In this document: piece after piece, positions 1 through 39,589 of the stretch
Layout: each line of letters starts with the position of its first letter
Numbering within the stretch: the stretch's first letter is position 1
Source of the DNA: Inhella gelatinilytica
Lineage (GTDB): Bacteria; Pseudomonadota; Gammaproteobacteria; Burkholderiales; Burkholderiaceae_C
NCBI RefSeq assembly: GCF_016093295.1
Contig: NZ_JAEDAL010000001.1
Span: forward strand, 930,001-994,000
Reading direction: 5' to 3'
DNA length: 64,000 bases
Translations under genes and position numbers: made by a program
The notes under the pieces: generated by a model
Database searches by the model: none
The model's input: only the letters and a program-made list of their open reading frames with translations
What the model was told of the DNA's origin: nothing

Positions 1-1266
1 GAGGGGCTGCTGGCGGCCCTGCTTGCTTTGTGGGCGTTTGTGCGCGCCGACGAGGCCCGGTCGCTGGGCGCGCGTTCGGCCGTGATCTGGTCCTGGCAGG
101 TCGTCTCGTGGGTGGCTTACGTCGTGGCCCTCACTGCCAAAGAGGTCTATGCGCCGCTGCCGCTGTTGCTCCTGGTGTGGCCCATGCGTACTGACCGACG
201 GGGGCTTCGGGTTCTGCCGTTTTGGGTGATCCTGGGTCTCTATTTGGGTTGGCGCAGGTTGATGCTGGGGGTGGTTTCAGGGGGCTATGCCGCGTCCGAG
301 ACTTGGTTGGTGGAGTCTGCCTTGGTGGCGTTCGGCCACACGTTGCAGCGCCTGCCCGCTTTGATGTGGGGCGAGTGGTGGGGTGTGCCCCTGGGGTTGA
401 CATTCCTCGCCAGCCTCTGGGTGCTTGGGTGCCGCCTCCGCCGTGCGGTACCCGCAATGGTGTTGGGCCTGATTGCGGTGGCACCGCTCTTGCCTTTGTC
501 GATTTATCCCGGGGTCACGGCGCCGGACCGTTACCTGTTCTTGCCCGTCTTTCTGCTCAACGTAGGGGTGCTGAGCCTCGTCGGGCAGGCCTGTGCTGCG
601 TTGCCAGAGCGTGCACGCTGGGCGCTGGGAGTGCTCTTTGGGCTCGCATGGGGCGTACCGACGGCTGTGCACGAGGCCCGTCAGGCGCAGGCGCGAGGGG
701 CGCTTGCGCAGGAGTACGACGTGCAGGGGCGCTACCTGTGGGCCCATGAAGACGGCGAAACCTACATTCCCTCGGAAGTCCTGCTCAATACTTACTTGTA
801 TGCGGACCAACTCTGCCGCATCAAAGCGCAAGCGGGTGTCACCTGTCCAACAGCACTGATGTTGGGTCACGACCTTCCTGCCCCGGGGGCTGCAGCTGTT
901 CGTGCCTACGAGGCCGGTCACATGCGGGTGCTGGATCCCGCACAGGTGCGCCAGCGCTTGGCCCTGGAAGGAAAGGTTGCCCTGCAAGCGCAGTGGAGCT
1001 TGCAGGCCGGCGTGCTGCGCTGGCGCCTGGAGGCTGATGTACCTGGCGCCTTTGCGGTGGTGTCCCGTGAGTTTGGGCGCTACTGGCTGCCGGCCGAGGG
1101 CAGCTTGCGCACAGGTCTCAAGGGACTGGAGTTTCGGCTGCTGCATGTCGATGTGGCGGGGCGCGTAGGGTCGTCGCCGCTGCTGCGGCTGACGCATGGG
1201 GAGTTCTGGTGTCTGCGCGTGCCAGCCGCCCCATCGAACGGGGACTGCCCCCTAGTCCCAAAGTAG
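1..1266 (+). CDS. Integral membrane protein, 5' end outside window (partial), function unknown
   Basis: The reading frame is already open at base 1, so the true start lies upstream; 421 residues are visible before the TAG stop at 1264-1266. Roughly the first 215 residues are hydrophobic and form several membrane segments, with a proline- and arginine-containing loop (TAPDRYLF) before the last ones. The remaining 200 residues are soluble and have two or three cysteines, possibly facing the periplasm. The topology recalls the glucosyl/mannosyltransferase-like membrane proteins (GT39/TMTC-like), but I do not recognise a catalytic motif and give no function. The last codons overlap the conserved element shared by the narK leaders (1252-1268). 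Confidence 0.75.
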   Translation, partial: EGLLAALLALWAFVRADEARSLGARSAVIWSWQVVSWVAYVVALTAKEVYAPLPLLLLVWPMRTDRRGLRVLPFWVILGLYLGWRRLMLGVVSGGYAASETWLVESALVAFGHTLQRLPALMWGEWWGVPLGLTFLASLWVLGCRLRRAVPAMVLGLIAVAPLLPLSIYPGVTAPDRYLFLPVFLLNVGVLSLVGQACAALPERARWALGVLFGLAWGVPTAVHEARQAQARGALAQEYDVQGRYLWAHEDGETYIPSEVLLNTYLYADQLCRIKAQAGVTCPTALMLGHDLPAPGAAAVRAYEAGHMRVLDPAQVRQRLALEGKVALQAQWSLQAGVLRWRLEADVPGAFAVVSREFGRYWLPAEGSLRTGLKGLEFRLLHVDVAGRVGSSPLLRLTHGEFWCLRVPAAPSNGDCPLVPK

Positions 1267-1380
1267 TACCCCGGGACCGCCCTGCCGTCCTCCTTCCGCG
1301 GCGGCGGGCCTCCCCCCACGGTTGAATGGTTGCGAAGGGGCTGGCGGCGCACAGTGACGGGTATCCCAAAAGAAGAGGAG
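1252..1380 (+). promoter_or_regulatory. narK1 leader element, shared with narK3 leader
   Basis: The 17-mer CTAGTCCCAAAGTAGTA at 1252-1268 recurs with two changes before narK3 (5464-5480). Twenty bases further on comes CCTCCTTCC (1289-1297), which is identical in the narK3 leader (5497-5505). CCTCCTTCC resembles the anti-Shine-Dalgarno end of 16S rRNA. It could pair with the narK1 ribosome binding site (GAAGAGG, 1372-1378) in a 7-bp stem with one bulged C. Either a promoter element (the right end reads TACTACT on the minus strand, near a NarL heptamer) or a leader RNA is possible. A narK RNA motif has been described in betaproteobacteria, as far as I recall; I cannot verify a match. Confidence 0.5.
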
Positions 1381-1386
1381 CCTGTC

Positions 1387-2643
1387 ATGGTTTCCGGCGC
1401 GATCCCCAACAGTCGAAAAGCGTGGTCGGTGCTGATCGTCAGCACGCTGGCCTTTACCGTGTGCTTCATGGTCTGGATGATGTTCGGCGTCATCGGCATC
1501 CCCATCAAGAAGCAGCTGGGTCTGAATGCCACCGAATTTGGCCTGCTCACCGCCACGCCGGTGCTGACCGGTTCGTTGGTGCGCGTGCCGCTGGGCATCT
1601 GGACGGACAAGTACGGCGGCCGCATTGTGATGGCGCTCTTGATGGCGGCCACGGTGCCGGCCATCTGGTTGATGGCCTACGCCACCGAGTACTGGCATTT
1701 CCTGGTCATCGGCCTCTTCGTTGGCCTGGCGGGCGGTTCGTTCTCCGTGGGCACGCCCTACGTGGCCCGCTGGTTCCCAGCCAACCGCAAGGGCATGGCC
1801 ATGGGGGTGTATGGCGCCGGCAACTCGGGCGCCGCGGTGAACAAGTTCATCGCTCCGGTGCTGGTGGTGGCCTTTGGCTGGACGATGGTGCCGCAGGTGT
1901 ACGCGGCCATCATGGCCGGAACGGTGCTGCTGTTCTGGTTCTTCAGTCACCACGACCCGGCGCACACGGTGCAGAGCAATGCCAGCTTCATGGAGCAGCT
2001 CAAGGCGCTGAAAGACCCCAAGGTGCTGAAGTACTGCCAGTACTACAGCATCGTGTTCGGCGGCTACGTGGCCCTGGCCCTGTGGATGGTGCAGTACTAC
2101 GTGGGTGAGTACGGTCTGGACATCCGCGTCGCCGCCCTGTTGGCGGCCTGCTTCTCGTTGCCCGGCGGCGTGCTGCGCGCCATCGGCGGGGTGCTGTCGG
2201 ACAAGTACGGCGCGCACAAGGTCACCTGGTGGGTGATGTGGGTGAGCTGGATCTGCTTGTTCTTGCTCAGCTACCCCCAAACCGACTTCACCGTCATCAC
2301 GGTGAATGGTCCGCAGACCTTCCACATTGGTTTGAACGTCTATGCCTTCACCGCGCTGATGGGCATCTTGGGCGTGGCCTGGGCCTTCGGCAAGGCCAGC
2401 GTCTTCAAGTACATCGGCGACGAGTACCCGCACAACATCGGCACCATCTCCGGCATCGTCGGTCTGGCTGGCGGCCTGGGCGGCTTCGTCCTGCCCATCA
2501 TGTTTGGCGCCTTGCTGGACTTCACGGGTATTCGATCCAGCGCCTTCATGCTGATGTACGGCGTGGTCTGGGTTTCGCTGATCTGGATGTACTGGACCGA
2601 GGTGCGCGGCACCGAGGTGATGAACAAGACCGTCACCGCTTGA
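1387..2643 (+). CDS. narK1: NarK1-type nitrate/proton MFS transporter
   Basis: 418 residues, twelve expected membrane segments, major facilitator superfamily, nitrate/nitrite porter branch. The start is the ATG at 1387, placed seven bases after AGAGGAG; an upstream in-frame GTG/ATG would add 19 residues that look non-coding. The N-half carries the MFS loop R-x-P-L-G-x-x-x-D-K-Y-G-G (about residues 53-66) and the C-half repeats it as R-A-I-G-G-V-L-S-D-K-Y-G; the two arginines correspond to the substrate-binding pair of NarK proteins. Between TM4 and TM5 it has GGSFSVG in place of the NarK2 nitrate signature, typical of NarK1 symporters. It is followed after 71 bases by narK2. Role (nitrate entry that starts respiration) is inferred from the family and from paired narK1-narK2 genes in other denitrifiers. 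Confidence 0.9.
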   Translation: MVSGAIPNSRKAWSVLIVSTLAFTVCFMVWMMFGVIGIPIKKQLGLNATEFGLLTATPVLTGSLVRVPLGIWTDKYGGRIVMALLMAATVPAIWLMAYATEYWHFLVIGLFVGLAGGSFSVGTPYVARWFPANRKGMAMGVYGAGNSGAAVNKFIAPVLVVAFGWTMVPQVYAAIMAGTVLLFWFFSHHDPAHTVQSNASFMEQLKALKDPKVLKYCQYYSIVFGGYVALALWMVQYYVGEYGLDIRVAALLAACFSLPGGVLRAIGGVLSDKYGAHKVTWWVMWVSWICLFLLSYPQTDFTVITVNGPQTFHIGLNVYAFTALMGILGVAWAFGKASVFKYIGDEYPHNIGTISGIVGLAGGLGGFVLPIMFGALLDFTGIRSSAFMLMYGVVWVSLIWMYWTEVRGTEVMNKTVTA

Positions 2644-2650
2644 ACCTTTC

Positions 2651-2683
2651 GCAGCGGGCCCGATTGTTCGTGAGGCTCGCTGC
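2651..2683 (+). other. Intercistronic hairpin between narK1 and narK2
   Basis: GCAGCGGGCC (2651-2660) pairs with GGCTCGCTGC (2674-2683) over ten base pairs, one of them G-U, with a 13-base loop. The downstream tract is CCCCCTTTCTC, so it is a weak terminator at best. It may be an mRNA-stabilising or attenuating stem within a narK1-narK2 transcript. Confidence 0.35.
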
Positions 2684-2714
2684 CCCCTTTCTCTAGCCCA
2701 CAAGGCAGCCCATC

Positions 2715-4427
2715 ATGGCAAAAATTCAAAACTGGAAGCCGGAGGATCCCACCTTCTGGCAAGAGCAGGGCAGTGCGCTGGCCTGGCGCACCTGCGCCAT
2801 CACCACGTTCTCGCTGATCTTCTCGTTCGCGACTTGGTTCGTGATGAGCGCGGTGGTCGTGCGCATGCCGGCCATTGGCTTCAAATTCACCACCACCGAG
2901 CTGTTCTGGCTGGCGGCCATGCCGGGCCTGGCTTCGGGCATCCTGCGCTTGATCCACTCGAACTTCATCCCGGTGCTCGGGACGCGGCCGGTGATCAGCA
3001 TCTCCACCATCATCAAAGTCATCCCCATGGTGTGGCTGGGCTATGCGATTCAAGACCTGAATACGCCCTACATGACCTTCCTGATGATTGCCTTCCTGTG
3101 CGGCATGGGCGGGGGCGACTTCTCGTCCTTCATGCCCAGCACCAGCATCTTCTTCCCGAAGCGGCTGCAGGGCACGGCCATGGGCATCCAGGCCGGCATC
3201 GGCAACTTCGGGGTCTCGGTGGTGCAGTTTGTGGCGCCGTGGATCATTGGCTTTGCGGCACTCGGGGCCAGCGTGGGCGGCCCCCAAGTCTTCACCAAAG
3301 GCGACGCCATCAAGGGGGCGCTGACCGTGACCAAGGCCGAGGGCAAGGTCACCGATGTGGGGGTCAAACCCGAGTACGCGGCAGCGGTTGAAGTCGTGCG
3401 CGGCGAAGACGGCCAAATCAAGGATGTGGTGTTCAAAGAGACCGACACCGTGAAGGCCATCAAGGCGGATGTGGAAAAGGATGCGAACGGCGTCATCACC
3501 CAGGTCAACACCACCAAGGGTGTGGCGCTGGAAGTGAAGCGCAATCCGGACGGGGCGATTACGGATGTCAGCCTGAAGAACGTGGTGAAGAAGGGCATGT
3601 GGTTGCAGAACGCCGCCTTCATCTGGGTACCTTTCCTGGTGCTGGCCTTCATCTTGTCCGCCCTGTTCCTCAAGAGCCTGCAGTTGCCCACGCGGGGGTT
3701 CATGGGTCAGTTCGAGATCCTTTCGAGCCGCAACCGGGCCCGCACGCACACTTGGAACTGCACGATCACCTACATCTGCTCGTTCGGTTCGTTCTCGGGC
3801 TTCTCGGCCGCCTTCCCCATGCTGATCAAGACGCTGTACGGCGGCTTTGATGGCGCGCCGGACCCGCTGGCCTACGCCTACCTGGGCCCGCTGATTGGGG
3901 GCTTGGTGCGCATGCTCACCGGGGGCTTCTTCGACAAGATCGGTGGCTCCAAGGGCATGCAGTGGACGACGCTGGGCCAGATCCTGGGGGTGGTGTATTT
4001 GGTCATGAGCGGCAGCCTGACACCCACGAGCGTGGCGCAGTTTGACGGCTTCCTCTGGGGCATGCTGTGGATCTTCCTGATGAGCGGCATCAACAACGCG
4101 GCCACCTTCCGCCAGTACCCCATCGTGTTCGCCTACTCGCCGGCCAAGGGCGCGCAAATGCTCGGTTGGACGGGCGCCTGGGCGGCCTTTGGGCCCTTCG
4201 TCTGGAACGCGCTGATTGGCACCTCACTGGACAAGACGGGCACCGTGACGGCCTTCTTCGTCGGTGCGGCGGTGTTCTACGCCTACTCGCTGGTGGTGAA
4301 CTGGTGGTACTACACCCGCAAGGGCGCTGAACGGTTCGATTACGGCAACGCCGGTGGTACGTGGTGGGATGCACTGAGTGAACCCGAGAAAGACAAGATG
4401 CGCCGCATCGACCTCAAGCAAGCCTGA
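2715..4427 (+). CDS. narK2: NarK2-type nitrate/nitrite transporter with a large repeat insert
   Basis: 570 residues, about 100 longer than NarK3 encoded at 5564. Membrane segments are at about 30-50, 62-82, 92-112, 120-140, 158-187, 296-320 and six more. The nitrate-signature position reads GGGDFSSFM where NarK3 has GGGNFASSM, so an Asn is replaced by Asp. Both substrate arginines are kept (R78 in ILRLIH; R in GGLVRMLTGG). Residues 190-294 form a soluble insert between TM5 and TM6 made of four related units, each with a (D/N/E)G-x-(I/V)-(T/K)-x-V core. With the usual N-in topology this insert is periplasmic. The gene starts at ATG 2715, follows narK1, and is closed by a terminator at 4445-4479. 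Nitrate/nitrite exchange is inferred from the family. Confidence 0.9.
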   Translation: MAKIQNWKPEDPTFWQEQGSALAWRTCAITTFSLIFSFATWFVMSAVVVRMPAIGFKFTTTELFWLAAMPGLASGILRLIHSNFIPVLGTRPVISISTIIKVIPMVWLGYAIQDLNTPYMTFLMIAFLCGMGGGDFSSFMPSTSIFFPKRLQGTAMGIQAGIGNFGVSVVQFVAPWIIGFAALGASVGGPQVFTKGDAIKGALTVTKAEGKVTDVGVKPEYAAAVEVVRGEDGQIKDVVFKETDTVKAIKADVEKDANGVITQVNTTKGVALEVKRNPDGAITDVSLKNVVKKGMWLQNAAFIWVPFLVLAFILSALFLKSLQLPTRGFMGQFEILSSRNRARTHTWNCTITYICSFGSFSGFSAAFPMLIKTLYGGFDGAPDPLAYAYLGPLIGGLVRMLTGGFFDKIGGSKGMQWTTLGQILGVVYLVMSGSLTPTSVAQFDGFLWGMLWIFLMSGINNAATFRQYPIVFAYSPAKGAQMLGWTGAWAAFGPFVWNALIGTSLDKTGTVTAFFVGAAVFYAYSLVVNWWYYTRKGAERFDYGNAGGTWWDALSEPEKDKMRRIDLKQA

Positions 4428-4444
4428 TTGATTGCCGCACACTC

Positions 4445-4479
4445 AAACGGCCGAACGCCGCCTGGCTTCGGCCGTTTTT
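4445..4479 (+). terminator. Rho-independent terminator after narK2
   Basis: AAACGGCCGAA (4445-4455) pairs perfectly with TTCGGCCGTTT (4467-4477); the stem is followed by TTTT and lies 18 bases after the narK2 stop. It should end the narK1-narK2 transcript. Confidence 0.9.
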
Positions 4480-4502
4480 CCATGGACTCTCCCGGATCTC
4501 GA

Positions 4503-4700
4503 ATGACTTCTCTGGTTCACATCGGTGCCGTCGTTTACGGCCTGCTCCTGGTGGCGGCCGTCTTTGTGCGCACGCCCTTGACCGAGGCCCTGCGGATCGA
4601 CTCGCTCTTCATTCCGGATGCCGGCGAAAAGTCCCGTCCGCTGAATCTCATCCTGGGCCTGCTGATTGCCGGCTACGGGGCGTGGTCCTTGCTGCAGTGA
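4503..4700 (+). CDS. Small two-helix membrane protein, unknown
   Basis: 65 residues from the ATG at 4503; an in-frame ATG at 4482 would add seven residues. Upstream of these the frame runs through the narK2 terminator, so longer versions are unlikely. Two hydrophobic stretches (about residues 7-24 and 47-64) flank a polar loop with several charged residues. I do not recognise the family. It sits directly after the narK2 terminator and before a structured intergenic region, so it probably has its own promoter or depends on read-through. Coding status rests on codon periodicity and hydrophobic pattern only. Confidence 0.5.
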   Translation: MTSLVHIGAVVYGLLLVAAVFVRTPLTEALRIDSLFIPDAGEKSRPLNLILGLLIAGYGAWSLLQ

Positions 4701-4719
4701 CTGGCGCCACCCAAAAGAA

Positions 4720-4891
4720 CTAGGCGCGGCGGCCGGCTCCTCCTGCCAAGGAGCGTTGGCCGCTGCCCAACGGCAGGATGGCGCCGCGGGTCGGCGTTGG
4801 GCACAGTCCTGATCAAGGTGAAGACAGGCGGTCGCCTGTTGCCGCGGTCTTGACCTTGTTTGCGCCTGGGGCCCTGGCGGGTCCCTTTTTT
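4720..4891 (+). ncRNA. Candidate structured RNA: three consecutive stem-loops
   Basis: Three nested or perfect inverted repeats follow each other. First, GCGGCC (4729-4734) and GGCCGC (4758-4763) enclose GCTCC/GGAGC. Second, TGCCCAACG (4764-4772) pairs with CGTTGGGCA (4795-4803). Third, CAAGGTGAAGAC (4814-4825) pairs with GTCTTGACCTTG (4847-4858) with one mismatch and encloses AGGCG-GT-CGCCT. A terminator follows at 4892-4916. This could be the 3' UTR of the small gene at 4503 or an independent small RNA; high GC makes chance pairing easier, so confidence is limited. Confidence 0.4.
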
Positions 4892-4916
4892 GGGCTCCCT
4901 TGCGGGAGCCCTTTTT
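4892..4916 (+). terminator. Rho-independent terminator
   Basis: GGGCTCCC (4892-4899), loop TTGC, GGGAGCCC (4904-4911), then TTTTT. The T tract is on the plus-strand side only, so it serves plus-strand transcription from the small gene or the candidate RNA upstream, not dps. Confidence 0.9.
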
Positions 4917-4928
4917 CTTTCGTTGGGA

Positions 4929-5372
4929 TTAATCCTCCAACAGGGCGCGCAGCATCCAGGCGGTTTTCTGGTGGGCATCCAAACGCTGCGTGAGCAAGTC
5001 CGCGGTGGCGGCGTCCGGCGTGTGCTCGGCCAATGCGAGCAGTTCACCCAGCGACTGGATCAGCAACTGGTGCCCCGCCAGCAGGTGGCGCACCATGTCG
5101 AGCGCTTTGAGCGGCTCGCTTGGCGCTTCTGCAATGACCGTGAGTTGCTGGAATTGGCGGTACGACCCCGGGGCCCGGGCGCCCAACGCCCGGATGCGCT
5201 CGGCGATGGGGTCGGTGGCGTTCCACAGCTCCGTGTACTGCGTCATGAAGAGCGCGTGCAGCGAGGGAAACAGCGGACCCGTGACGTTCCAGTGAAAGTT
5301 GTGCGTATTCAGGTACAGCGTGTGGGTGTCGGCCAGCAGCTGGCTGAGGCCTTGGGTCAAGGGATGGGTCAT
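4929..5372 (-). CDS. dps: Dps family DNA-binding ferritin-like protein
   Basis: 147 residues, the normal Dps length. The ferroxidase signature is intact: H-N-F-H-W-N-V-T-G-P near residue 24, followed by the H-x-x-F-M-x-Q-Y-x-E and D-x-I-A-E-R-I-R-x-L-G stretches that supply the inter-subunit iron ligands. Dps dodecamers oxidise and store iron using peroxide and protect DNA. I chose the ATG at 5372 because GGAG lies seven bases upstream on the minus strand; the open frame continues further upstream by 19 codons without a ribosome site. It is divergent from narK3. The AT-rich gap contains ATCGAT-N12-ATCGAT (5429-5452), a possible operator. Confidence 0.95.
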   Translation of the reverse strand: MTHPLTQGLSQLLADTHTLYLNTHNFHWNVTGPLFPSLHALFMTQYTELWNATDPIAERIRALGARAPGSYRQFQQLTVIAEAPSEPLKALDMVRHLLAGHQLLIQSLGELLALAEHTPDAATADLLTQRLDAHQKTAWMLRALLED

Positions 5373-5428
5373 GACGGGACTCCGAGTGGCAATGGCGATA
5401 GGGTCGTTCTTGCTGCCGAATAAATCCA

Positions 5429-5452
5429 ATCGATTGAATCAAATGCATCGAT
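5429..5452. promoter_or_regulatory. AT-rich inverted repeat between dps and narK3
   Basis: ATCGAT at 5429-5434 and 5447-5452 lie 12 bases apart in the most AT-rich part of the divergent region. The position, about 57-80 bases before the dps start, suits a dps operator. I cannot assign a regulator; it is not a clean OxyR or FNR site. Confidence 0.3.
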
Positions 5453-5463
5453 AGATATCGTCA

Positions 5464-5550
5464 CTAGTACCAAAGGAGTAGACGCCTGGGTTCGTCCCTC
5501 CTTCCACCGATGCCGGCCGCTCGCCTGCCGGCAGGATGGTGAGGGAGACC
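5464..5550 (+). promoter_or_regulatory. narK3 leader element, shared with narK1 leader
   Basis: CTAGTACCAAAGGAGTA (5464-5480) matches the narK1 element at 15 of 17 positions, and CCTCCTTCC (5497-5505) is identical. The segment can fold: GGT (5489-5491) with ACC (5548-5550), TCCCT (5495-5499) with AGGGA (5542-5546), CACC (5505-5508) with GGTG (5538-5541), and an apical GCCGGC/GCCGGC. It ends 14 bases before the GTG start of narK3, so it is well placed to act as a leader RNA, though it could equally be a protein-binding promoter element. Confidence 0.5.
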
Positions 5551-5563
5551 AAGAGCGGCAACA

Positions 5564-6967
5564 GTGCAAGGTGTCAACTTGCCCCTGCTTGCCGTGAGCG
5601 CCACCGCTTTGATTCAGCACTGGAACCCCGAGGACGCCGCCTTCTGGCGCGGCCAGGGCCGGGCCGTGGCGCGCCGCAACCTGTGGCTGTCCATCCCGGC
5701 GTTGGCCCTCTCTTTTGCGGTGTGGATGGTGTGGTCCGTGGTGGTGGTCAACCTGCCAGCCGCGGGCTTTCGGTATTCAACCAACCAGCTCTTCTGGTTG
5801 GCGGCCCTGCCCGCCCTGTGCGGGGCCACGCTGCGCATCTTCTACAGCTTTGCGGTACCGGTTTTCGGCGGGCGGCGCTGGACGGCCCTGTCCACAGCCA
5901 GCCTGTTGCTGCCGGCCCTGGGCATCGGCTTTGCCGTGCAAGACCCGGCCACGCCCTACGAAGTGATGGTGCTGCTGGCGCTGCTCTGCGGCCTGGGCGG
6001 CGGCAACTTCGCCAGCTCCATGAGCAACATCAGCTTCTTCTTCCCGAAGGCGGAAAAGGGGACGGCCCTGGGCCTGAACGCGGGCTTGGGCAACCTGGGC
6101 GTGAGCATGGTTCAAGTGGTGGTGCCCCTGGTGGTGGCTGCCGGCGTTTTTGGCACCGTGGGGGGCGCACCGGCCCCGACGGACAAAGGCCCGTTGTGGT
6201 TGCAAAACGCTGGGTTTGTGTGGGTGCCTTTCATTGTGGCCAGCAGCCTGGCGGCGTGGCTGGGCATGAACGATTTGGCCGACGCCCGCGCCAGTTTTGG
6301 CGAACAAGCGGTGATCTTCACGCGCCGGCACAACTGGCTGATGTGCTGGCTCTACATCGGTACCTTTGGCAGCTTCATTGGCTATTCGGCGGGTTTTCCG
6401 CTGCTCATTCAGAGCCAGTTCCCCGGCGTGAATGCCCTGCAAGTGGCGTGGCTGGGTCCGCTCGTCGGGGCCCTGAGTCGACCGCTGGGTGGCTGGCTGA
6501 GTGACCGCGTGGGTGGTGCCCGGGTCACCTTCTGGACCTTTGCGGTCATGGCCTTGGGCGTGCTGGCGGTACTGATGACGCTGCCTGGCGCGGGTCGCGC
6601 CGGTTCCTTTGCCGGTTTTTTGAGCGCCTTCTTGCTGCTTTTTGCCGCCTCCGGGGTGGGCAATGGCAGCACCTTCCGCATGATCCCCGTGATCTTTCTG
6701 ACCCTGCACCAGCGGGCCGCGGGCCCGCACGTGGCCGCCCAGGACCAAGCGGTGCGGGACGCCAACAAGGAGGCGGCGGCGGTGCTGGGGTTCAGCTCCG
6801 CTGTGGGTGCCTACGGCGGTTTTTTTATTCCGAAGAGCTACGGCACCTCGATTGCCCTCACGGGCAGCGCCGAGGCCGCGCTCATCTGTTTCATTGCGTT
6901 CTACGTCAGCTGCTTGGCCATCACCTGGTGGTTCTACAGCCGGCGCCACGCGCCCATGCCCTGTTAA
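5564..6967 (+). CDS. narK3: NarK-type nitrate/nitrite transporter heading the nar operon
   Basis: 467 residues if the GTG at 5564 is used; a second in-frame GTG at 5594 gives a 457-residue protein whose N-terminus (I-Q-H-W-N-P-E-D) aligns with the start of NarK2 and may be the real one. It has twelve predicted membrane segments, the canonical nitrate signature GGGNFASSM-x-N-I-S and both substrate arginines (L-R-I-F-Y; A-L-S-R-P-L-G-G). The TM5-TM6 loop is only about ten residues, unlike NarK2. narG begins 21 bases downstream, so it is the first gene of narK3-narGHJI. The family exchanges nitrate for nitrite or nitrate for protons. Confidence 0.9.
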   Translation: MQGVNLPLLAVSATALIQHWNPEDAAFWRGQGRAVARRNLWLSIPALALSFAVWMVWSVVVVNLPAAGFRYSTNQLFWLAALPALCGATLRIFYSFAVPVFGGRRWTALSTASLLLPALGIGFAVQDPATPYEVMVLLALLCGLGGGNFASSMSNISFFFPKAEKGTALGLNAGLGNLGVSMVQVVVPLVVAAGVFGTVGGAPAPTDKGPLWLQNAGFVWVPFIVASSLAAWLGMNDLADARASFGEQAVIFTRRHNWLMCWLYIGTFGSFIGYSAGFPLLIQSQFPGVNALQVAWLGPLVGALSRPLGGWLSDRVGGARVTFWTFAVMALGVLAVLMTLPGAGRAGSFAGFLSAFLLLFAASGVGNGSTFRMIPVIFLTLHQRAAGPHVAAQDQAVRDANKEAAAVLGFSSAVGAYGGFFIPKSYGTSIALTGSAEAALICFIAFYVSCLAITWWFYSRRHAPMPC

Positions 6968-6988: not shown

Positions 6989-9900
6989 ATGTCGCATTTC
7001 CTTGACCGCCTCACGGCCTTTGCGCTGCCCAAAGAAGGCTTCGCCAATGGCCATGGCGTCACCACCGGTGAGGACCGGACTTGGGAAGACGCTTACCGCA
7101 ACCGTTGGGCGCACGACAAGATCGTGCGTTCGACCCACGGTGTGAACTGCACGGGCTCCTGCTCGTGGAAGATCTACGTCAAGGGCGGCATCGTCACCTG
7201 GGAAACCCAGCAGACCGACTACCCGCGCACGCGCCCGGACCTGCCCAACCACGAACCGCGCGGCTGCCAGCGCGGGGCCAGCTACAGCTGGTACCTGTAC
7301 AGCGCCAACCGCGTGAAGTACCCGATGGTGCGCGGCCGCCTGCTCAAGCGCTGGCGCGAAGCCCTGGCCGTGGCCAAGAGCCCGGTCGATGCCTGGTCCC
7401 TGATCCAAGACGACCCCGCCGCACGCCGCGACTACCAGCAGGTGCGCGGCATGGGTGGCTTTGTGCGCTCGACCTGGGACGAAGTGAACCAGCTGATCGC
7501 TGCGGCCAACGTCTACACGATCAAGAAGCACGGCCCGGACCGCGTGATTGGCTTCTCGCCGATCCCTGCCATGTCCATGGTGTCCTACGCCGCCGGCAGC
7601 CGCTACCTGAGTCTGATCGGTGGCGTCTGCATGAGCTTCTACGACTGGTACTGCGACTTGCCCCCGAGCAGCCCGCAGATCTGGGGTGAGCAGACCGACG
7701 TGCCGGAATCGGCCGATTGGTACAACTCCAACTACATCATTGCCTGGGGCTCCAACGTGCCCCAAACCCGCACGCCGGATGCCCACTTCTTCACCGAGGT
7801 GCGCTACAAGGGCGCCAAGACCGTGGCGGTCACGCCTGATTACTCCGAAGTCGCCAAGCTGGCCGACCTCTGGCTGCACCCCAAGCAAGGCACGGACGCC
7901 GCCTTGGCGATGGCCATGGGTCACGTGGCGCTGAACGAGTTCTACTTCAAGCAGCGTTCGGCCTACTTTGACGACTACGCGCGCCGTTACACCGACATGC
8001 CGCTGCTGGTGATGCTCGAAGAGCAGACCCTGGCCGACGGCCGCAAGGTGCTGGCACCCCAGCGCTATGTGCGCGCCAGCGATTTCGACAACAAGCTGGA
8101 CCAGGCCAACAACCCCGAGTGGAAGACGGTCGCCTTTGACACCAGCGGCCGCGTGGTGCTGCCCAATGGCTCGATCGGCTTCCGCTGGGGCGCCGACGGC
8201 CGCGACGACAAGGGCAAGTGGAACCTGGAGTCCAAGGAAGCCCAGGGCGACGGCGACGTCAAGCTCAAGCTGTCGATCATCGAGGACGGCGCGCAGGCCC
8301 ATGAGGTCGTGGACGTGGCCTTCCCCTACTTCGCCGGTACCGAGCACCCGCACTTCAAGTCCAACCAGCAAAACGGCGACGCCAACGTGCAGCGCGTGCC
8401 GGCCAGCCGCATGCACCTGGGCGGCAAGGACGTGCTCGTCGCCACCGTGTTCGACCTGCAGGTCGCGCAGTACGGCATCAACCGCGGCCTGGGTTCGGGC
8501 GCCAAGAGCTACGACGACGACGCGGCCTACACCCCGGCCTGGCAAGAAAAGATCACCGGCGTGCCGCGTGATCAAGTCATCACCGTGGCGCGTCAGTTCG
8601 CCGACAACGCGGACAAGACCCAGGGCCGCTCGATGATCATCATCGGCGCCGCCATGAACCACTGGTACCACTGCGACATGAACTACCGCGGTGTGATCAA
8701 CCTCTTGATGATGTGCGGCTGTATCGGCCAGAGCGGTGGCGGCTGGGCCCACTATGTGGGCCAGGAAAAGCTGCGTCCGCAGACCGGCTGGACGGCACTC
8801 GCCTTCGCGCTCGACTGGAGCCGCCCGCCGCGCCAGCAAAACAGCACCAGCTTCTTCTACGCCCACACCGACCAGTGGCGCTACGAAAAGCTGGGCGTGG
8901 ACGAGGTGCTGTCGCCCTTGGCGACCCAGGCCCAACGCCAGGAATTCAGCGGCAGCATGATCGATCAGAACGTGCGCGCCGAGCGCATGGGCTGGTTGCC
9001 CAGCGCCCCGCAGCTCAAGACCAATCCGCTGCAAATCGTCAAGGACGCCGCCAAGGCCGGCATGGATCCCAAGGACTATGTCGTCAAGGGCCTGAAGGAC
9101 GGCAGCCTGACCATGAGCTGCGAGGACCCGGACCATCCGGACAACTGGCCGCGCAACATGTTCGTCTGGCGCTCCAACCTGCTGGGCTCCAGCGGCAAGG
9201 GTCACGAATACTTCTGCAAGCACTTGCTGGGCACCAGCAACGGCGTGCAGGGCAAGGACTTGGGGACTGACGACGCCAAGCCGCTGGAAGTGCAGTGGCA
9301 CGACAAAGCGCCCGAAGGCAAGCTGGATCTTTTGGTGACGCTGGACTTCCGCATGAGCACCACGGCGCTCTACTCGGACATCGTGTTGCCCACCGCCAGC
9401 TGGTACGAGAAGAACGACCTCAACACCAGTGACATGCACCCCTTCATCCACCCGCTGTCGGCGGCCGTGGACCCGGTGTTCCAGTCGCGCTCCGACTGGG
9501 AGATCTACAAGGGTCTGGCCAAGGCCTTCAGCGAGGTCTGCGTCGGCCACCTGGGCGTGGAAAAGGAAATCGTGCTGAACCCGCTGATGCACGACACCCC
9601 GGCCGAGTTGGCCCAGCCTTTCGGTGTGCAGGAATGGAAGAAGGGTCAGATCGACCTCATCCCGGGCAAAACCGCCCCGACCATGACCGTGGTCGAGCGC
9701 CATTACCCCGACACCTACAAGCGCTTCACCTCGCTCGGCCCCCTGATGGACAAGCTGGGCAACGGCGGCAAGGGCATCGGCTGGGACACCAAGACCGAAG
9801 TCGCGCAGCTGGGTGAGTTGAACGGTGTGGACGGCGAAGGCCGCCCGCGCATCGTGAGCGACATCGACGCCTGCGAAGTGATCCTGCAACTGGCGCCGGA

Positions 9901-10777
9901 AACCAACGGCCACGTGGCCGTCAAGGCCTGGGACGCGCTGAGCAAGTACACCGGTCGCGACCACGAGCACCTGGCCCTGCACCGCGAGGACGAGAAGATC
10001 CGTTACCGCGACGTGCAGGCCCAGCCGCGCAAGATCATCAGCTCGCCGACCTGGTCGGGCCTCGAGAGCGAGAAGGTCTCCTACAACGCCGGCTACACCA
10101 ACGTGCACGAGCTGATCCCATGGCGTACCTTGACCGGCCGCCAGCAGTTCTACCAGGATCACCCCTGGATGGTGGCCTTCGGCGAGGGCTTCAGCAGCTA
10201 TCGCCCGCCGGTGGACTTGAAGGCCACCAGCGAAATGCTGGGCGTCAAGCCCAACGGCAACAAGGAAATCCAGCTCAACTTCATCACGCCGCACCAGAAG
10301 TGGGGCATCCACAGCACGTACAGCGACAACCTGATGATGTTGACGCTGAACCGCGGTGGCCCCGTGATCTGGCTGAGCGAGGACGACGCCAAGTCGGCCG
10401 GCATCGAGGACAACGACTGGGTCGAGCTGTTCAACGTCAACGGCGCCATTGCGGCCCGTGCGGTGGTGAGCCAGCGCGTGAACCCGGGCATGACCCTGAT
10501 GTACCACGCGCAGGAAAAGATCATCAATGCCCCGGGCAGCGAGATCACCGGCATCCGCGGTGGCATCCACAACTCGGTCACGCGCGTGGTGCTCAAACCC
10601 ACCCACATGATCGGCGGCTACGCCCAGTACAGCTACGGCTTCAATTACTACGGCACGATCGGTACCAACCGCGACGAATTCGTCATCGTGCGCAAGATGA
10701 AGAACGTGGACTGGCTGGACACACCCACGGACGACCACCTCGCGCCTGCCTACCAAGCGCAAGGCGAGAACCCCTGA
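6989..10777 (+). CDS. narG: Respiratory nitrate reductase alpha subunit
   Basis: 1262 residues, full length for membrane-bound NarG. It binds the Mo-bisMGD cofactor and FS0 and reduces nitrate to nitrite in the cytoplasm. FS0 ligands are visible as H50-x3-C54-x3-C58 and C93. The aspartate molybdenum ligand sits in P-E-S-A-D-W (D243), followed by Y-N-S-N-Y-I-I-A-W-G-S-N-V. No twin-arginine signal is expected and none is seen beyond the usual vestigial start. The start ATG at 6989 has AGGAGAG nine bases upstream. It lies between narK3 (21 bases) and narH (21 bases). The opposite strand has an open frame of 1661 codons across this gene, which is a codon-bias shadow. Confidence 0.99.
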   Translation: MSHFLDRLTAFALPKEGFANGHGVTTGEDRTWEDAYRNRWAHDKIVRSTHGVNCTGSCSWKIYVKGGIVTWETQQTDYPRTRPDLPNHEPRGCQRGASYSWYLYSANRVKYPMVRGRLLKRWREALAVAKSPVDAWSLIQDDPAARRDYQQVRGMGGFVRSTWDEVNQLIAAANVYTIKKHGPDRVIGFSPIPAMSMVSYAAGSRYLSLIGGVCMSFYDWYCDLPPSSPQIWGEQTDVPESADWYNSNYIIAWGSNVPQTRTPDAHFFTEVRYKGAKTVAVTPDYSEVAKLADLWLHPKQGTDAALAMAMGHVALNEFYFKQRSAYFDDYARRYTDMPLLVMLEEQTLADGRKVLAPQRYVRASDFDNKLDQANNPEWKTVAFDTSGRVVLPNGSIGFRWGADGRDDKGKWNLESKEAQGDGDVKLKLSIIEDGAQAHEVVDVAFPYFAGTEHPHFKSNQQNGDANVQRVPASRMHLGGKDVLVATVFDLQVAQYGINRGLGSGAKSYDDDAAYTPAWQEKITGVPRDQVITVARQFADNADKTQGRSMIIIGAAMNHWYHCDMNYRGVINLLMMCGCIGQSGGGWAHYVGQEKLRPQTGWTALAFALDWSRPPRQQNSTSFFYAHTDQWRYEKLGVDEVLSPLATQAQRQEFSGSMIDQNVRAERMGWLPSAPQLKTNPLQIVKDAAKAGMDPKDYVVKGLKDGSLTMSCEDPDHPDNWPRNMFVWRSNLLGSSGKGHEYFCKHLLGTSNGVQGKDLGTDDAKPLEVQWHDKAPEGKLDLLVTLDFRMSTTALYSDIVLPTASWYEKNDLNTSDMHPFIHPLSAAVDPVFQSRSDWEIYKGLAKAFSEVCVGHLGVEKEIVLNPLMHDTPAELAQPFGVQEWKKGQIDLIPGKTAPTMTVVERHYPDTYKRFTSLGPLMDKLGNGGKGIGWDTKTEVAQLGELNGVDGEGRPRIVSDIDACEVILQLAPETNGHVAVKAWDALSKYTGRDHEHLALHREDEKIRYRDVQAQPRKIISSPTWSGLESEKVSYNAGYTNVHELIPWRTLTGRQQFYQDHPWMVAFGEGFSSYRPPVDLKATSEMLGVKPNGNKEIQLNFITPHQKWGIHSTYSDNLMMLTLNRGGPVIWLSEDDAKSAGIEDNDWVELFNVNGAIAARAVVSQRVNPGMTLMYHAQEKIINAPGSEITGIRGGIHNSVTRVVLKPTHMIGGYAQYSYGFNYYGTIGTNRDEFVIVRKMKNVDWLDTPTDDHLAPAYQAQGENP

Positions 10778-10798
10778 TCACGACGCGAGGAGAAACAC

Positions 10799-12322
10799 AT
10801 GAAAGTTCGCGCCCAAATCGGCATGGTGCTGAACCTGGACAAGTGCATCGGCTGCCACACCTGTTCGGTCACCTGCAAAAACGTCTGGACCAGCCGTCCC
10901 GGCGTGGAGTACGCCTGGTTCAACAACGTCGAAACCAAGCCCGGCATTGGCTATCCCAAGGAGTGGGAGAACCAAGACAAGTGGAACGGCGGTTGGATTC
11001 GCAAGAGCGATGGTTCCATCGAGCCCCGTCAAGGCGGCAAGTGGAAGCTGCTGATGCGCATCTTCGCCAACCCGAACTTGCCGGAGATCGACGACTACTA
11101 CGAGCCGTTCACCTTCGACTACGACCACCTGCACTCGGCCCCCGAGATGAAGGCCTCGCCCACGGCGCGTCCTCGCTCGCTGATCACCGGCCAGCGCATG
11201 GAGAAGATCGAGTGGGGTCCGAACTGGGAAGAAATTCTCGGCGGCGAGTTCCACAAGCGCAGCAAGGACAAGAACTTCGACCACATCCAGAAGCAGATGT
11301 ACGGCGAGTTCGAAAACACCTTCATGATGTACCTGCCGCGCCTGTGCGAGCACTGCCTGAACCCGGCGTGCGTGGCCTCGTGCCCCTCGGGCTCGATCTA
11401 CAAGCGCGAGGAAGACGGCATCGTCCTGATCGACCAGGACAAGTGCCGCGGCTGGCGCATGTGCGTCTCGGGCTGCCCGTACAAGAAGATTTATTACAAC
11501 TGGAAGAGCGGCAAGGCTGAGAAGTGCATCTTCTGCTACCCCCGCATCGAAGCCGGTCAGCCCACGGTCTGCTCGGAAACCTGCGTGGGCCGTATCCGCT
11601 ACCTGGGTGTGTTGCTGTATGACGCGGACCGCATCCAAGAAGCGGCCAGCGTCGCCAATGACAAGGATCTGTACCGCGCCCAGTTGGACATCTTCCTGGA
11701 CCCGAACGACCCGAAGGTGATCGAGCAGGCCCGCAAGGACGGCATCCCCGACAACTGGCTCGAGTCGGCCAAGAACAGCCCCGTCTACAAGATGGCCGTG
11801 GACTGGAAGGTCGCGCTGCCGCTGCACCCCGAGTACCGCACGCTGCCCATGGTCTGGTACATCCCGCCGCTCTCGCCCATCACCTCGGCCGCCAACGCCG
11901 GGCACCTGGGTCAGAACGGTGAGATCCCCGACGTGAACCAGCTGCGCATCCCGGTGCAATACCTGGCCAACCTGCTGACCGCCGGCGACACCGCCCCGGT
12001 GACGCGCGCCCTGGAACGCATGCTCGCCATGCGCGCCTACCAGCGCGGCGTGCACGTGGACGGTCAGCGCAACGCGGCGGTGCTGACGCAAGTCGGCATC
12101 ACCGAGGCGCAGGTGCAGGACATGTACAAGATCATGGCCATCGCCAACTACGAGGACCGCTTCGTCATCCCCACCACGCACCGTGAGTACGCTGAGAACG
12201 CGTTCAACGTGCGCGGCGGCTGCGGCTTCAGCTTCGGCAACGGCTGCTCCGAGGGTGTGACCGAGACCAGCCTGTTTGGCTCGGAGAAGAAGCGCACCAT
12301 CCCCATCAAGGTGGGGGTCTGA
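10799..12322 (+). CDS. narH: Respiratory nitrate reductase beta (iron-sulfur) subunit
   Basis: 507 residues, full length. It carries the electron-transfer chain FS1-FS4. The first cluster set is C16, C19, C22 and C26. Around residues 180-265 are the further cysteine groups C-E-H-C, C-V-A-S-C-P, C-R-G-W-R-M-C, C-V-S-G-C-P, C-I-F-C and C-S-E-T-C. The tryptophan in CRGWRMC replaces a cysteine, the hallmark of the [3Fe-4S] centre FS4. GCGAGGAGAAACAC precedes the ATG. It is three bases from narJ. Confidence 0.99.
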   Translation: MKVRAQIGMVLNLDKCIGCHTCSVTCKNVWTSRPGVEYAWFNNVETKPGIGYPKEWENQDKWNGGWIRKSDGSIEPRQGGKWKLLMRIFANPNLPEIDDYYEPFTFDYDHLHSAPEMKASPTARPRSLITGQRMEKIEWGPNWEEILGGEFHKRSKDKNFDHIQKQMYGEFENTFMMYLPRLCEHCLNPACVASCPSGSIYKREEDGIVLIDQDKCRGWRMCVSGCPYKKIYYNWKSGKAEKCIFCYPRIEAGQPTVCSETCVGRIRYLGVLLYDADRIQEAASVANDKDLYRAQLDIFLDPNDPKVIEQARKDGIPDNWLESAKNSPVYKMAVDWKVALPLHPEYRTLPMVWYIPPLSPITSAANAGHLGQNGEIPDVNQLRIPVQYLANLLTAGDTAPVTRALERMLAMRAYQRGVHVDGQRNAAVLTQVGITEAQVQDMYKIMAIANYEDRFVIPTTHREYAENAFNVRGGCGFSFGNGCSEGVTETSLFGSEKKRTIPIKVGV

Positions 12323-12324
12323 TC

Positions 12325-12999
12325 ATGGCGCTGCCTTCCAAAATGGTGCACAGCCTGCGCGTCCTCGCGCGGCTGGTGCGCTACCCCGATCAGGCGGTGC
12401 GTGACCTGTTGCCCGAGCTCCAAGCGGCCCTGCGCGCCGAAGCGGCGCTGGGCGCGGCGCGCCTGCGGGAGATTGATGCCCTCATCGATCACCTGCTGAG
12501 CGCCGACCCGCTCAAGGTGGAGGCCGAGTTCGTCGAGCAGTTCGACCGCGGGCGCCGCACGGCGCTCTACCTGTTCGAGCACGTGCACGGCGATTCGCGC
12601 GACCGCGGTCAGGCCATGGTGGACCTCATCAAGACCTACGAAGAAGCCGGGCTCATGATGGACCCGGGCGAACTGCCCGACCACCTGCCCGTGGTGCTGG
12701 AGTACGCCAGCACCCAGCCGCCCGAAGCAGCCCGCGCCTTCCTCGGTGAGCTCTCGCACATCCTCAAGGCCATTCACACGGCCCTGGTGGAGCGTCGAAG
12801 CCCCTACGCCAGCGTGCTGGCCGCGGTGCTGGACCTTGCCGGGGAAGCCACGGAAGCGGTGGCCCTCGCGCCCGAGCCGGCCATGGACGAGGCCTGGCAG
12901 GAGCCCGAGCCCTTTGGTGGCTGCAACAGCAAGGGCCAGACTGGCCCGCAACCCATTCAAATCCACCGCCGCAAGGCGGGCGAAGGAGCACGAGCATGA
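12325..12999 (+). CDS. narJ: Nitrate reductase maturation chaperone
   Basis: 224 residues, TorD/NarJ family, all-helical. NarJ binds the NarG N-terminus and assists molybdenum cofactor and FS0 insertion before membrane docking; it is not part of the final enzyme. The conserved stretch L-A-R-L-V-R-Y-P near residue 14, the F-V-E-Q-F-D motif and E-H-V-H-G-D-S-R-D-R-G-Q-A-M are typical. The C-terminal 40 residues are proline- and glycine-rich and variable in the family. The stop overlaps the narI start by four bases (ATGA), so the two are translationally coupled. Confidence 0.97.
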   Translation: MALPSKMVHSLRVLARLVRYPDQAVRDLLPELQAALRAEAALGAARLREIDALIDHLLSADPLKVEAEFVEQFDRGRRTALYLFEHVHGDSRDRGQAMVDLIKTYEEAGLMMDPGELPDHLPVVLEYASTQPPEAARAFLGELSHILKAIHTALVERRSPYASVLAAVLDLAGEATEAVALAPEPAMDEAWQEPEPFGGCNSKGQTGPQPIQIHRRKAGEGARA

Positions 13000-13691
13000 G
13001 CCTTCATAACTTTCTCTTCGTCGTCTATCCCTACATCTGCCTCTCGGTCTTCCTGATGGGCAGCTTGGCGCGCTTTGACCGCGACCAGTACACCTGGAAG
13101 AGCGACTCCTCCCAGATGTTGCGCAAAGGGAGCCTGGGCTGGGCCAGCAACATGTTCCATGCGGGCATCTTGTTCTTGTTCATGGGTCACACCGTGGGCA
13201 TGCTGACCCCGCACGCGCTGTATGAGCACTTCATCAGCCCGGCCAACAAGCAAATGCTGGCGATGGTGGCCGGCGGCATTGCCGGCGTGATCTGCTTCAT
13301 CGGCTTGACCGGTTTGATCGTGCGTCGCATGAGCGACCCGCGCATCCGCCTGACCAGCCACCGCACGGATCTGGCGATTCTGCTGATCCTGTGGGTGCAG
13401 TTGAGCCTGGGTCTCTTGACCCTGCCGGCGTCGATGTCCCACGCCGATGGCTCCGTCATGTTGCAACTGTCCGACTGGGCGCAGCGCATCGTCACCTTCA
13501 ACCCGGATGCGGCCGGGCTGGTGAACCTGCACTGGACCTACAAGGTGCACATGGTGCTGGGCATGACCATCTTCTTCTTGTTCCCCTTCAGCCGTTTGGT
13601 GCACGTGTGGAGCGGTCTGGCTTCCATTGGCTACGTGCTGCGCCCCTACCAAGTGGTGCGTTCGCGTCGCATGAACTTGCCCCAGCGATAA
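12996..13691 (+). CDS. narI: Respiratory nitrate reductase gamma subunit (cytochrome b)
   Basis: 231 residues with five membrane helices. It oxidises quinol on the periplasmic side and passes electrons through two b haems to NarH. The four haem ligands are in place: H55 and H65 in helix II, H185 and H203 in helix V (the E. coli numbers are 56, 66, 187 and 205). The ATG overlaps the narJ stop. It is the last gene of the reductase operon proper, and a palindromic intergenic element follows. Confidence 0.98.
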   Translation: MSLHNFLFVVYPYICLSVFLMGSLARFDRDQYTWKSDSSQMLRKGSLGWASNMFHAGILFLFMGHTVGMLTPHALYEHFISPANKQMLAMVAGGIAGVICFIGLTGLIVRRMSDPRIRLTSHRTDLAILLILWVQLSLGLLTLPASMSHADGSVMLQLSDWAQRIVTFNPDAAGLVNLHWTYKVHMVLGMTIFFLFPFSRLVHVWSGLASIGYVLRPYQVVRSRRMNLPQR

Positions 13692-32969: not shown

Positions 32970-32983
32970 TTGATTTTGCTCAA
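32970..32983. promoter_or_regulatory. FNR/Dnr-like box between REC-GGDEF gene and nrdJ
   Basis: TTGATTTTGCTCAA: perfect left arm, right arm CTCAA with one mismatch. The centre is 91.5 bases before the nrdJ ATG and about the same distance from the divergent gene. nrdJ, an anaerobically useful enzyme, is the more plausible target. Confidence 0.55.
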
Positions 32984-39479: not shown

Positions 39480-39589
39480 GGCCGCAACCAAGTGCGCAAA
39501 GAGAAGGCGCGTTTTAGCAGGAATCTCCTCCTTTGGGAGGAAATCCGAGCCGGTTGCGTGTTTGTCCTAGGCTGTGTGGGTACGGCCCC

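What the first reader, a model, noticed from the sequence alone, without database searches (positions are those of the whole stretch)
1252..5550. A shared leader element before narK1 and narK3, different from the Dnr boxes
CTAGT-x-CCAAAG-x-AGTA (1252-1268, 5464-5480; 15/17 identical) and the exact 9-mer CCTCCTTCC (1289-1297, 5497-5505) recur in the same order and at similar spacing before the only two transcription units for nitrate uptake and reduction. Neither unit has an FNR/Dnr box, while almost everything downstream does. CCUCCUUCC copies the 16S anti-Shine-Dalgarno sequence and can pair with the narK1 ribosome site. This suggests a nitrate- or redox-responsive leader RNA, or a NarL-like promoter motif. 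I recall a narK RNA motif reported for betaproteobacteria but cannot check identity.
Basis: partly seen in the sequence, partly recalled or inferred. Interest (0 to 1): 0.62.

Follow-up and report, generated by a model that had tools for sequence, protein, structure and literature searches.

The report
NarL-type operators before two nitrate promoters
The two nitrate gene clusters of this bacterium share a conserved stretch of promoter DNA that most likely binds the nitrate-sensing regulator NarL, so it is a DNA switch of a known kind rather than a new RNA switch.

Summary
The repeats are real: CTAGTnCCAAAGnAGTA (1252-1268, 5464-5480) and CCTCCTTCC (1289-1297, 5497-5505). The 17-mer pattern has two exact hits in the 3.52-Mb genome. 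A matrix built only from Burkholderiales narK1 leaders ranks the two sites first and second of 127,970 position-and-strand scores in the window. The core is a 16-bp dyad laid out like a NarL 7-2-7 operator; both window copies lie inverted relative to most relatives. In 64 of 76 relatives it starts 92-97 bp before a conserved -35/17-bp/-10 promoter; in the window 97 and 95. The narK3 leaders of relatives examined (9 entries, 7 distinct loci) share the layout. The dyad co-occurs with NarX (81 of 94 motif genomes, p 3e-23), its backwards control does not (p 0.24). narX-narL lie 20-23 kb upstream of narK1. The elements precede the predicted transcription starts and no Rfam family matches. The NarL-promoter reading is supported; the RNA and anti-Shine-Dalgarno readings are not. 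Binding by NarL itself is inferred. Neither promoter has an FNR box; an FNR-like box precedes narX, so oxygen control may act through narXL.

The parts
1253..1268 (-). Element A of narK1: 16-bp dyad TACTACTTTGGGACTA (minus strand), NarL-type 7-2-7 site, predicted about -101 from the start of transcription; overlaps the last bases and stop codon of the upstream ORF 28-1266
   Evidence: Rank 1 of 127,970 scores with the oriented matrix of relatives; 2 exact 17-mer hits in the genome
1288..1297 (+). Element B of narK1: TCCTCCTTCC, probable single NarL heptamer or half site
   Evidence: 8/11 match at offset 35 from A; relatives mostly at 33-34
1327..1332 (+). -35 region of narK1 (TGGTTG), preceded by GAA
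   Evidence: A to -35 74 bp, spacer 17
1350..1355 (+). -10 hexamer of narK1 (CACAGT); transcription predicted to start near 1362
   Evidence: A to -10 97 bp; p 0.0016 when limited to offsets 92-97, 0.031 over the whole range
1387..2643 (+). narK1, nitrate/nitrite MFS transporter
   Evidence: TIGR00886 E 1.6e-60, below its curated cut-off
2715..4427 (+). narK2, nitrate/nitrite transporter
   Evidence: NF011608 E 9.8e-70, below its cut-off
5465..5480 (-). Element A of narK3: dyad TACTCCTTTGGTACTA (minus strand), predicted about -99.5
   Evidence: Rank 2 of 127,970 scores
5496..5505 (+). Element B of narK3: CCCTCCTTCC
   Evidence: CCTCCTTCC recurs at A+35 in the narK3 leaders of L009 and L013 (and L111, apparently the same locus as L013); the automatic B scan picked another place in this leader, with 7/11
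5537..5542 (+). -35 region of narK3 (TGGTGA), preceded by GGA
5560..5565 (+). -10 hexamer of narK3 (AACAGT); transcription predicted near 5572
   Evidence: A to -10 95 bp; 0 of 40,000 pooled shuffles reach the score at offsets 92-97
5594..6967 (+). narK3; start moved from GTG 5564 to GTG 5594 (or TTG 5609), because GTG 5564 lies in the -10
   Evidence: The 11 full-length homologues align from residue 6 to 18, 10 of them from 12 to 18; TIGR00886 above cut-off
6989..13691 (+). narG, narH, narJ, narI
   Evidence: All above NCBIfam cut-offs

Best explanation
Both elements are DNA parts of two sister sigma-70-type promoters, one for narK1-narK2 and one for narK3-narGHJI. Element A (16-bp dyad, about -100) and element B (about -70) are sites for phosphorylated NarL, the response regulator encoded with NarX 20-23 kb upstream. 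A weak -35 (TGGnnn) and a -10 (mACAGT) follow at fixed distance. On nitrate, NarX phosphorylates NarL, which binds A, B and perhaps a degenerate third site at the -35, and recruits RNA polymerase. Shown: the sites, their conservation, fixed spacing, co-occurrence with narX and absence of an FNR box. Inferred: NarL as the binder, activation rather than repression, the transcription starts, the third site, and oxygen input through an FNR-like box before narX.
For: A matrix from 46 distinct relatives' sites, window excluded, ranks the two sites 1 and 2 of 127,970 scores. A to -10 is 92-97 bp in 64 of 76 relatives against 8% of shuffles, and 97 and 95 bp in the window. The narK3 leaders of relatives examined (9 entries, 7 distinct loci) show 95-96 bp with GGA-TGG / 17 bp / GAGCAT. 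In 830 kb of relatives' loci, 71 hits of 15 bits or more lie in the narK1 leaders and 10 outside: 6 in narK3 leaders, 2 shortly before narX, 1 just before another gene, 1 unclear. The motif TASTYCTTNNGRACKA occurs in 94 of 298 genomes, 81 of them with NarX; 53 NarX genomes lack it; OR 17.8, p 3e-23; 72 of 105 hits in NarX genomes lie within 20 kb of narX, about 1 expected. The backwards control is not tied to NarX (OR 1.3, p 0.24). The window sites are inverted relative to most relatives, as a DNA dyad allows. The genome encodes NarX and a NarL-type regulator whose best solved match is the NarL chain 1a04 (E 2.5e-44). NarL of E. coli is known to bind 16-bp 7-2-7 dyads, also tandem ones at -44.5 and -77.5 (PMC7419079, passages read).
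Against: No binding or expression data. Co-occurrence with NarX also means co-occurrence with nar genes, so another nar-linked regulator is not excluded; Fisher's test ignores relatedness of the genomes. In raw counts the motif is rarer than its backwards control (120 hits against 166 in 298 genomes), so only its distribution is informative. Most relatives' half sites have G at position 3 (TAGTTCT), not the C of the recalled E. coli heptamer TACYYMT. The response regulator scores 201 bits against NCBIfam's NarL cut-off of 250, and the kinase is below the NarQ and NarX cut-offs. The exact motif is missing from 53 of 134 NarX genomes, this one included: the window sites deviate from it. narK1's own promoter match is modest (p 0.031 over the whole range).
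Confidence: 0.85

Rival explanations
1. A nitrate- or redox-responsive structured leader RNA, with CCUCCUUCC masking the ribosome site.
For: In relatives an A-B hairpin folds unusually well (z below -2) in 14 of 50 leaders with narL just upstream and 3 of 26 others. The narK3 leader of the window folds somewhat better than its shuffles (z -1.73, 9 of 200).
Against: No Rfam match; ordinary fold of the narK1 leader and of the A-B stretch in both; A occurs inverted; A and B lie upstream of a conserved promoter; CCUCCUUCC does not pair with the ribosome site in the narK1 minimum-energy fold. Several relatives' hairpins end in T runs and look like narXL terminators (the 14/50 versus 3/26 difference is only p 0.087).
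Confidence: 0.05
2. The dyad is the site of another regulator that travels with nar genes, not NarL.
For: Half sites differ from the recalled E. coli heptamer at position 3 in most relatives; co-occurrence cannot tell nar-linked regulators apart.
Against: The 16-bp length, inverted-repeat layout and fixed promoter distance fit NarL; narL precedes narK1 within 800 bp in 50 of the 76 loci with a called site. The dyad is not the FNR/Dnr box TTGATnnnnATCAA.
Confidence: 0.09
3. Chance resemblance between two GC-rich leaders, or a recent local duplication without function.
For: 24 of 1963 random window pairs reach both criteria.
Against: Conserved in relatives for narK1 and narK3, with fixed promoter spacing.
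Confidence: 0.01

Closest known systems
NarL 7-2-7 operators of E. coli, e.g. ogt (-44.5 and -77.5) and yeaR (PMC7419079 and PMC4549865, passages read)
   Same: 16-bp dyad of two inverted 7-base elements two bases apart; tandem sites; nitrate genes; NarX-NarL encoded. Both window dyads match the recalled consensus TACYYMTNNAKRRGTA at 11 of 14 positions; random 16-mers of this base composition reach that at a rate of 0.00055.
   Different: Half site mostly TAGTTCT or TCGTYCn in the relatives; A centred near -100; the second site (B) looks like a half site; no binding data.
narK1K2GHJI and narXL control in Pseudomonas aeruginosa by ANR and NarL (PMC5703892, passages read)
   Same: narK1/narK2 and narGHJI under NarL.
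   Different: There ANR and NarL act together on one operon; here two promoters, neither with an FNR/Dnr box.
nar2 operon of Methylophaga nitratireducenticrescens (PMC11526790, passages read)
   Same: No putative FNR site but several putative NarL sites before a nar operon.
   Different: Another organism; the passages seen report no conserved dyad-to-promoter distance.
narK RNA motif
   Same: Said to precede narK in betaproteobacteria.
   Different: No Rfam hit here and no paper with that phrase in the held library, so it could not be compared.

Membership tests
NarL 7-2-7 operator | Two inverted 7-base elements separated by 2 bp (16 bp) | tested here: met
   Dyads 1253-1268 and 5465-5480; 11 of 14 matches to the recalled consensus
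NarL 7-2-7 operator | Placed upstream of a promoter of a nitrate-respiration gene | tested here: met
   Predicted promoters; nar genes
NarL 7-2-7 operator | The genome encodes NarX and NarL | tested here: met
   L132 2127-4022 and 4042-4692; best PDB match of the regulator is NarL
NarL 7-2-7 operator | Regulator passes the curated NarL equivalog cut-off (a naming rule, not a property of the site) | tested here: not met
   201 bits against 250, though NarL is the best model; so called NarL-type
NarL 7-2-7 operator | Bound by phosphorylated NarL and required for nitrate control | not testable with these tools
   Needs footprint and reporter assays
Structured cis-regulatory leader RNA (Rfam) | Match to a described family | tested here: not met
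   No match at gathering score in the window or in 12 of the relative loci; nothing relevant up to E 10 in three leaders
Structured cis-regulatory leader RNA (Rfam) | Conserved fold supported by covariation | tested here: inconclusive
   A-B hairpin in some relatives, absent from the window; narK3 leader mildly stable; no covariation model or pair count was made
FNR/Dnr-controlled promoter | TTGATnnnnATCAA box with few mismatches | tested here: not met
   Best 4 and 3 mismatches in the two leaders; 44 of 76 relatives have a box with at most 2

The most novel reading that the evidence does not exclude
In this lineage the oxygen signal has moved up one level: FNR or Dnr acts on narXL (FNR-like box with 1 mismatch at L132:2088), while both structural promoters answer to NarL alone through a dyad whose half site has shifted from TAC to TAG in most relatives, so that nitrate respiration is a cascade rather than a two-input promoter.
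Probability: 0.3. Interest if true: 0.4.

Novelty: new member of a known kind. Interest (0 to 1): 0.3.

Why it matters
It supplies a sharp, searchable NarL-type operator and promoter layout for nitrate respiration in Burkholderiales, and an example in which both nar promoters lack an FNR box. It also removes a candidate riboswitch from the list.

Tried and rejected
Rfam scans of the window, 12 of the 80 relative loci and three single leaders gave nothing relevant. The A-B hairpin of relatives was considered as an RNA element and rejected for the window; the idea that it is a narXL terminator is only suggestive (14 of 50 versus 3 of 26, p 0.087). E. coli fdnG leader as a comparison: no 7-2-7 site found by my pattern, and a best matrix score of only 3.6, so that recalled example was dropped. 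An opposition between FNR boxes at narX and at narK1 across relatives was tested and not found (48 loci; p 1.0 and 0.52). Literature searches showed no described NarL box of these families among the listed titles and abstracts or the passages read: 15 of 23 papers listed, 10 of 55, 12 of 13, 10 of 25. The library lacks most subscription journals, so this is weak evidence of absence.

78 had 350 nt upstream; 76 passed my A-site threshold and 2 (L040, L077) were dropped, of which L077 has an inverted site that the oriented threshold missed. A few of the 76 (such as L036, L041, L044) probably show element B rather than A; they were kept. Sites were picked with an oriented consensus, so 'only 3 of 46 distinct sites score higher inverted' is biased low. 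The promoter consensus was read off the narK1 leaders by eye; the narK3 leaders and the window were not used for it, though I had looked at several of them. Two pairs of the nine narK3 entries have equal contig lengths and equal leaders (L113 with L004, L111 with L013), so I count 7 distinct loci; L006 is nearly identical to L004. Backwards controls of the pattern searches gave more hits than the patterns themselves; for I counted 166 against 120 and tested their tie to NarX. I did not total the controls.
Full report
OBSERVATION. Shuffles and random window pairs show that the pair alone is only moderately unlikely; the 9-mer by itself is not. The 17-mer pattern has exactly two exact hits in the 3.52-Mb genome, and the dyad core TASTNC-N4-GNASTA occurs at four places, two of them these. 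Backwards controls have more hits (15 at up to 2 mismatches; 20 per strand), so these searches show rarity, not enrichment. The units are narK1-narK2 and narK3-narGHJI.

RELATIVES. I took the best 80 narK1 loci, which are mostly named as Burkholderiales. Of 78 with enough upstream DNA, 76 pass my threshold for TAGTYCTTnnGRACKA, mostly 80-165 nt before the gene. A matrix from their 46 distinct sites, window excluded, scores the window sites first (1253) and second (5465) of 127,970 position-and-strand scores, both on the minus strand: the window copies are inverted relative to the common orientation. A near-symmetric dyad that works in either direction is expected of DNA bound by a dimer, not of an RNA.

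PROMOTER. Downstream of the dyad lies a conserved GGA-TGnnCA, 17 bp and a TAnnnT-like hexamer (mostly GACAGT or TACAGT). The distance from the dyad to the -10 is 92-97 bp in 64 of 76 relatives, against 8% of shuffles; well-scored exceptions lie at 71 (four loci), 84, 103, 105 and 106 bp, several about one helical turn away, and four poorly scored ones at 108-120. The window gives 97 and 95. narK1's own promoter match is modest over the whole range (p 0.031) and better within the expected spacing (p 0.0016); narK3's is strong. Element B sits 33-34 bp from A in 42 of the 55 leaders (of 78, window included) where it scores 8/11 or more; shuffles reach that in 4%. Both elements therefore precede the predicted starts, near 1362 and 5572.

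narK3. Of 12 full-length narK3 homologues checked, the window's own included, four have the dyad upstream: the window, L111, L112 and L113. The other eight (L103-L110) lack it; at least some of these follow narK1 closely, judged from the coordinates. Six narK3 leaders appeared as unplanned hits about 3 kb after narK1 starts.

REGULATOR. The genome encodes a NarX-type kinase (L132 2127-4022) and a NarL-type regulator (L132 4042-4692) 20-23 kb upstream of narK1; in 50 of the 76 relatives narL lies within 800 bp upstream of narK1. Among 298 genomes of the family, drawn from a larger group, TASTYCTTNNGRACKA is found in 94 and NarX (E at most 1e-60) in 134; both in 81, motif alone in 13, NarX alone in 53, neither in 151. 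The motif has 0.78 hits per NarX genome and 0.09 per other genome; the backwards control has 0.63 and 0.50 (p 0.24), although it has more hits in all, 166 against 120. An earlier search with the window's own 17-mer (up to 1 mismatch) hit 13 of 299 genomes; of the 13 hits outside this genome, 5 lie before narK1, 2 between two CRP/FNR-type genes (L093, L094), 1 beside a narX-like gene (L095) and 5 elsewhere (labels are my reading of translations). Two further hits stand shortly before narX in Malikia loci (L049, L077). No such site is found before narX in this genome.

OXYGEN. Neither window promoter has an FNR box, nor do 32 of the 76 relatives (box with at most 2 mismatches); in the other 44 it usually sits 24-25 nt upstream of A (39 of 44; two more at 14 nt). 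In this genome an FNR-like box with one mismatch lies before narX (L132:2088). In relatives 14 of 48 narX leaders have a box with at most 2 mismatches, against 3% of shuffles, but boxes at narX and at narK1 are not significantly opposed, so the cascade idea remains a suggestion.

RNA READING. No Rfam family matches. The narK1 leader folds like its shuffles (z -0.17), the narK3 leader somewhat better (z -1.73; 9 of 200 shuffles as stable or more); the A-B hairpin of some relatives is absent here, and CCUCCUUCC of narK1 pairs with 1334-1340 rather than with the ribosome site. I reject the RNA reading for the window, short of mapped 5' ends.

VERDICT. A NarL-type operator and promoter pair: a new member of a known kind, in a lineage for which I saw no description in the listings and passages.

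Noticed in passing
window 5564-5609: The longest narK3 frame starts at GTG 5564, inside the predicted -10; 10 of 11 full-length homologues align from residue 12-18, so the start is probably GTG 5594 or TTG 5609.
   Followed up: partly
window about 3300-3590: narK2 carries an insertion of roughly 95 residues that splits its match to NarK3 (932715-933302 and 933588-934328).
   Followed up: no
window 4929-5429 (-): A ferritin-like (Dps-type) gene (PF00210) stands between narK2 and narK3; in six relatives the narK3 dyad is only about 3 kb after the narK1 start, against 4.1 kb here.
   Followed up: no
window 39526-39541: Third-best place of the dyad matrix, the perfect palindrome TCCTCCTTTGGGAGGA.
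   Followed up: no
window 43919 and 57098: Two perfect TTGATnnnnATCAA boxes, plus three with one mismatch at 32970, 36843 and 58873.
   Followed up: no
L018 1095-1110: A dyad hit directly before a frame starting MHLTHWTDYSLRV, which looks like an Rrf2/NsrR-type regulator (recalled resemblance).
   Followed up: no
L155: A dyad hit lies among many short direct repeats (repeated FPGLDAPASLK in translation), which looks like a CRISPR array and is probably a chance hit.
   Followed up: no
relatives' narK1 leaders: The FNR box lies about 39.5 bp upstream of the centre of A, near -139 from the predicted start: too far for classic activation, so a second start or cooperation with NarL may exist.
   Followed up: no
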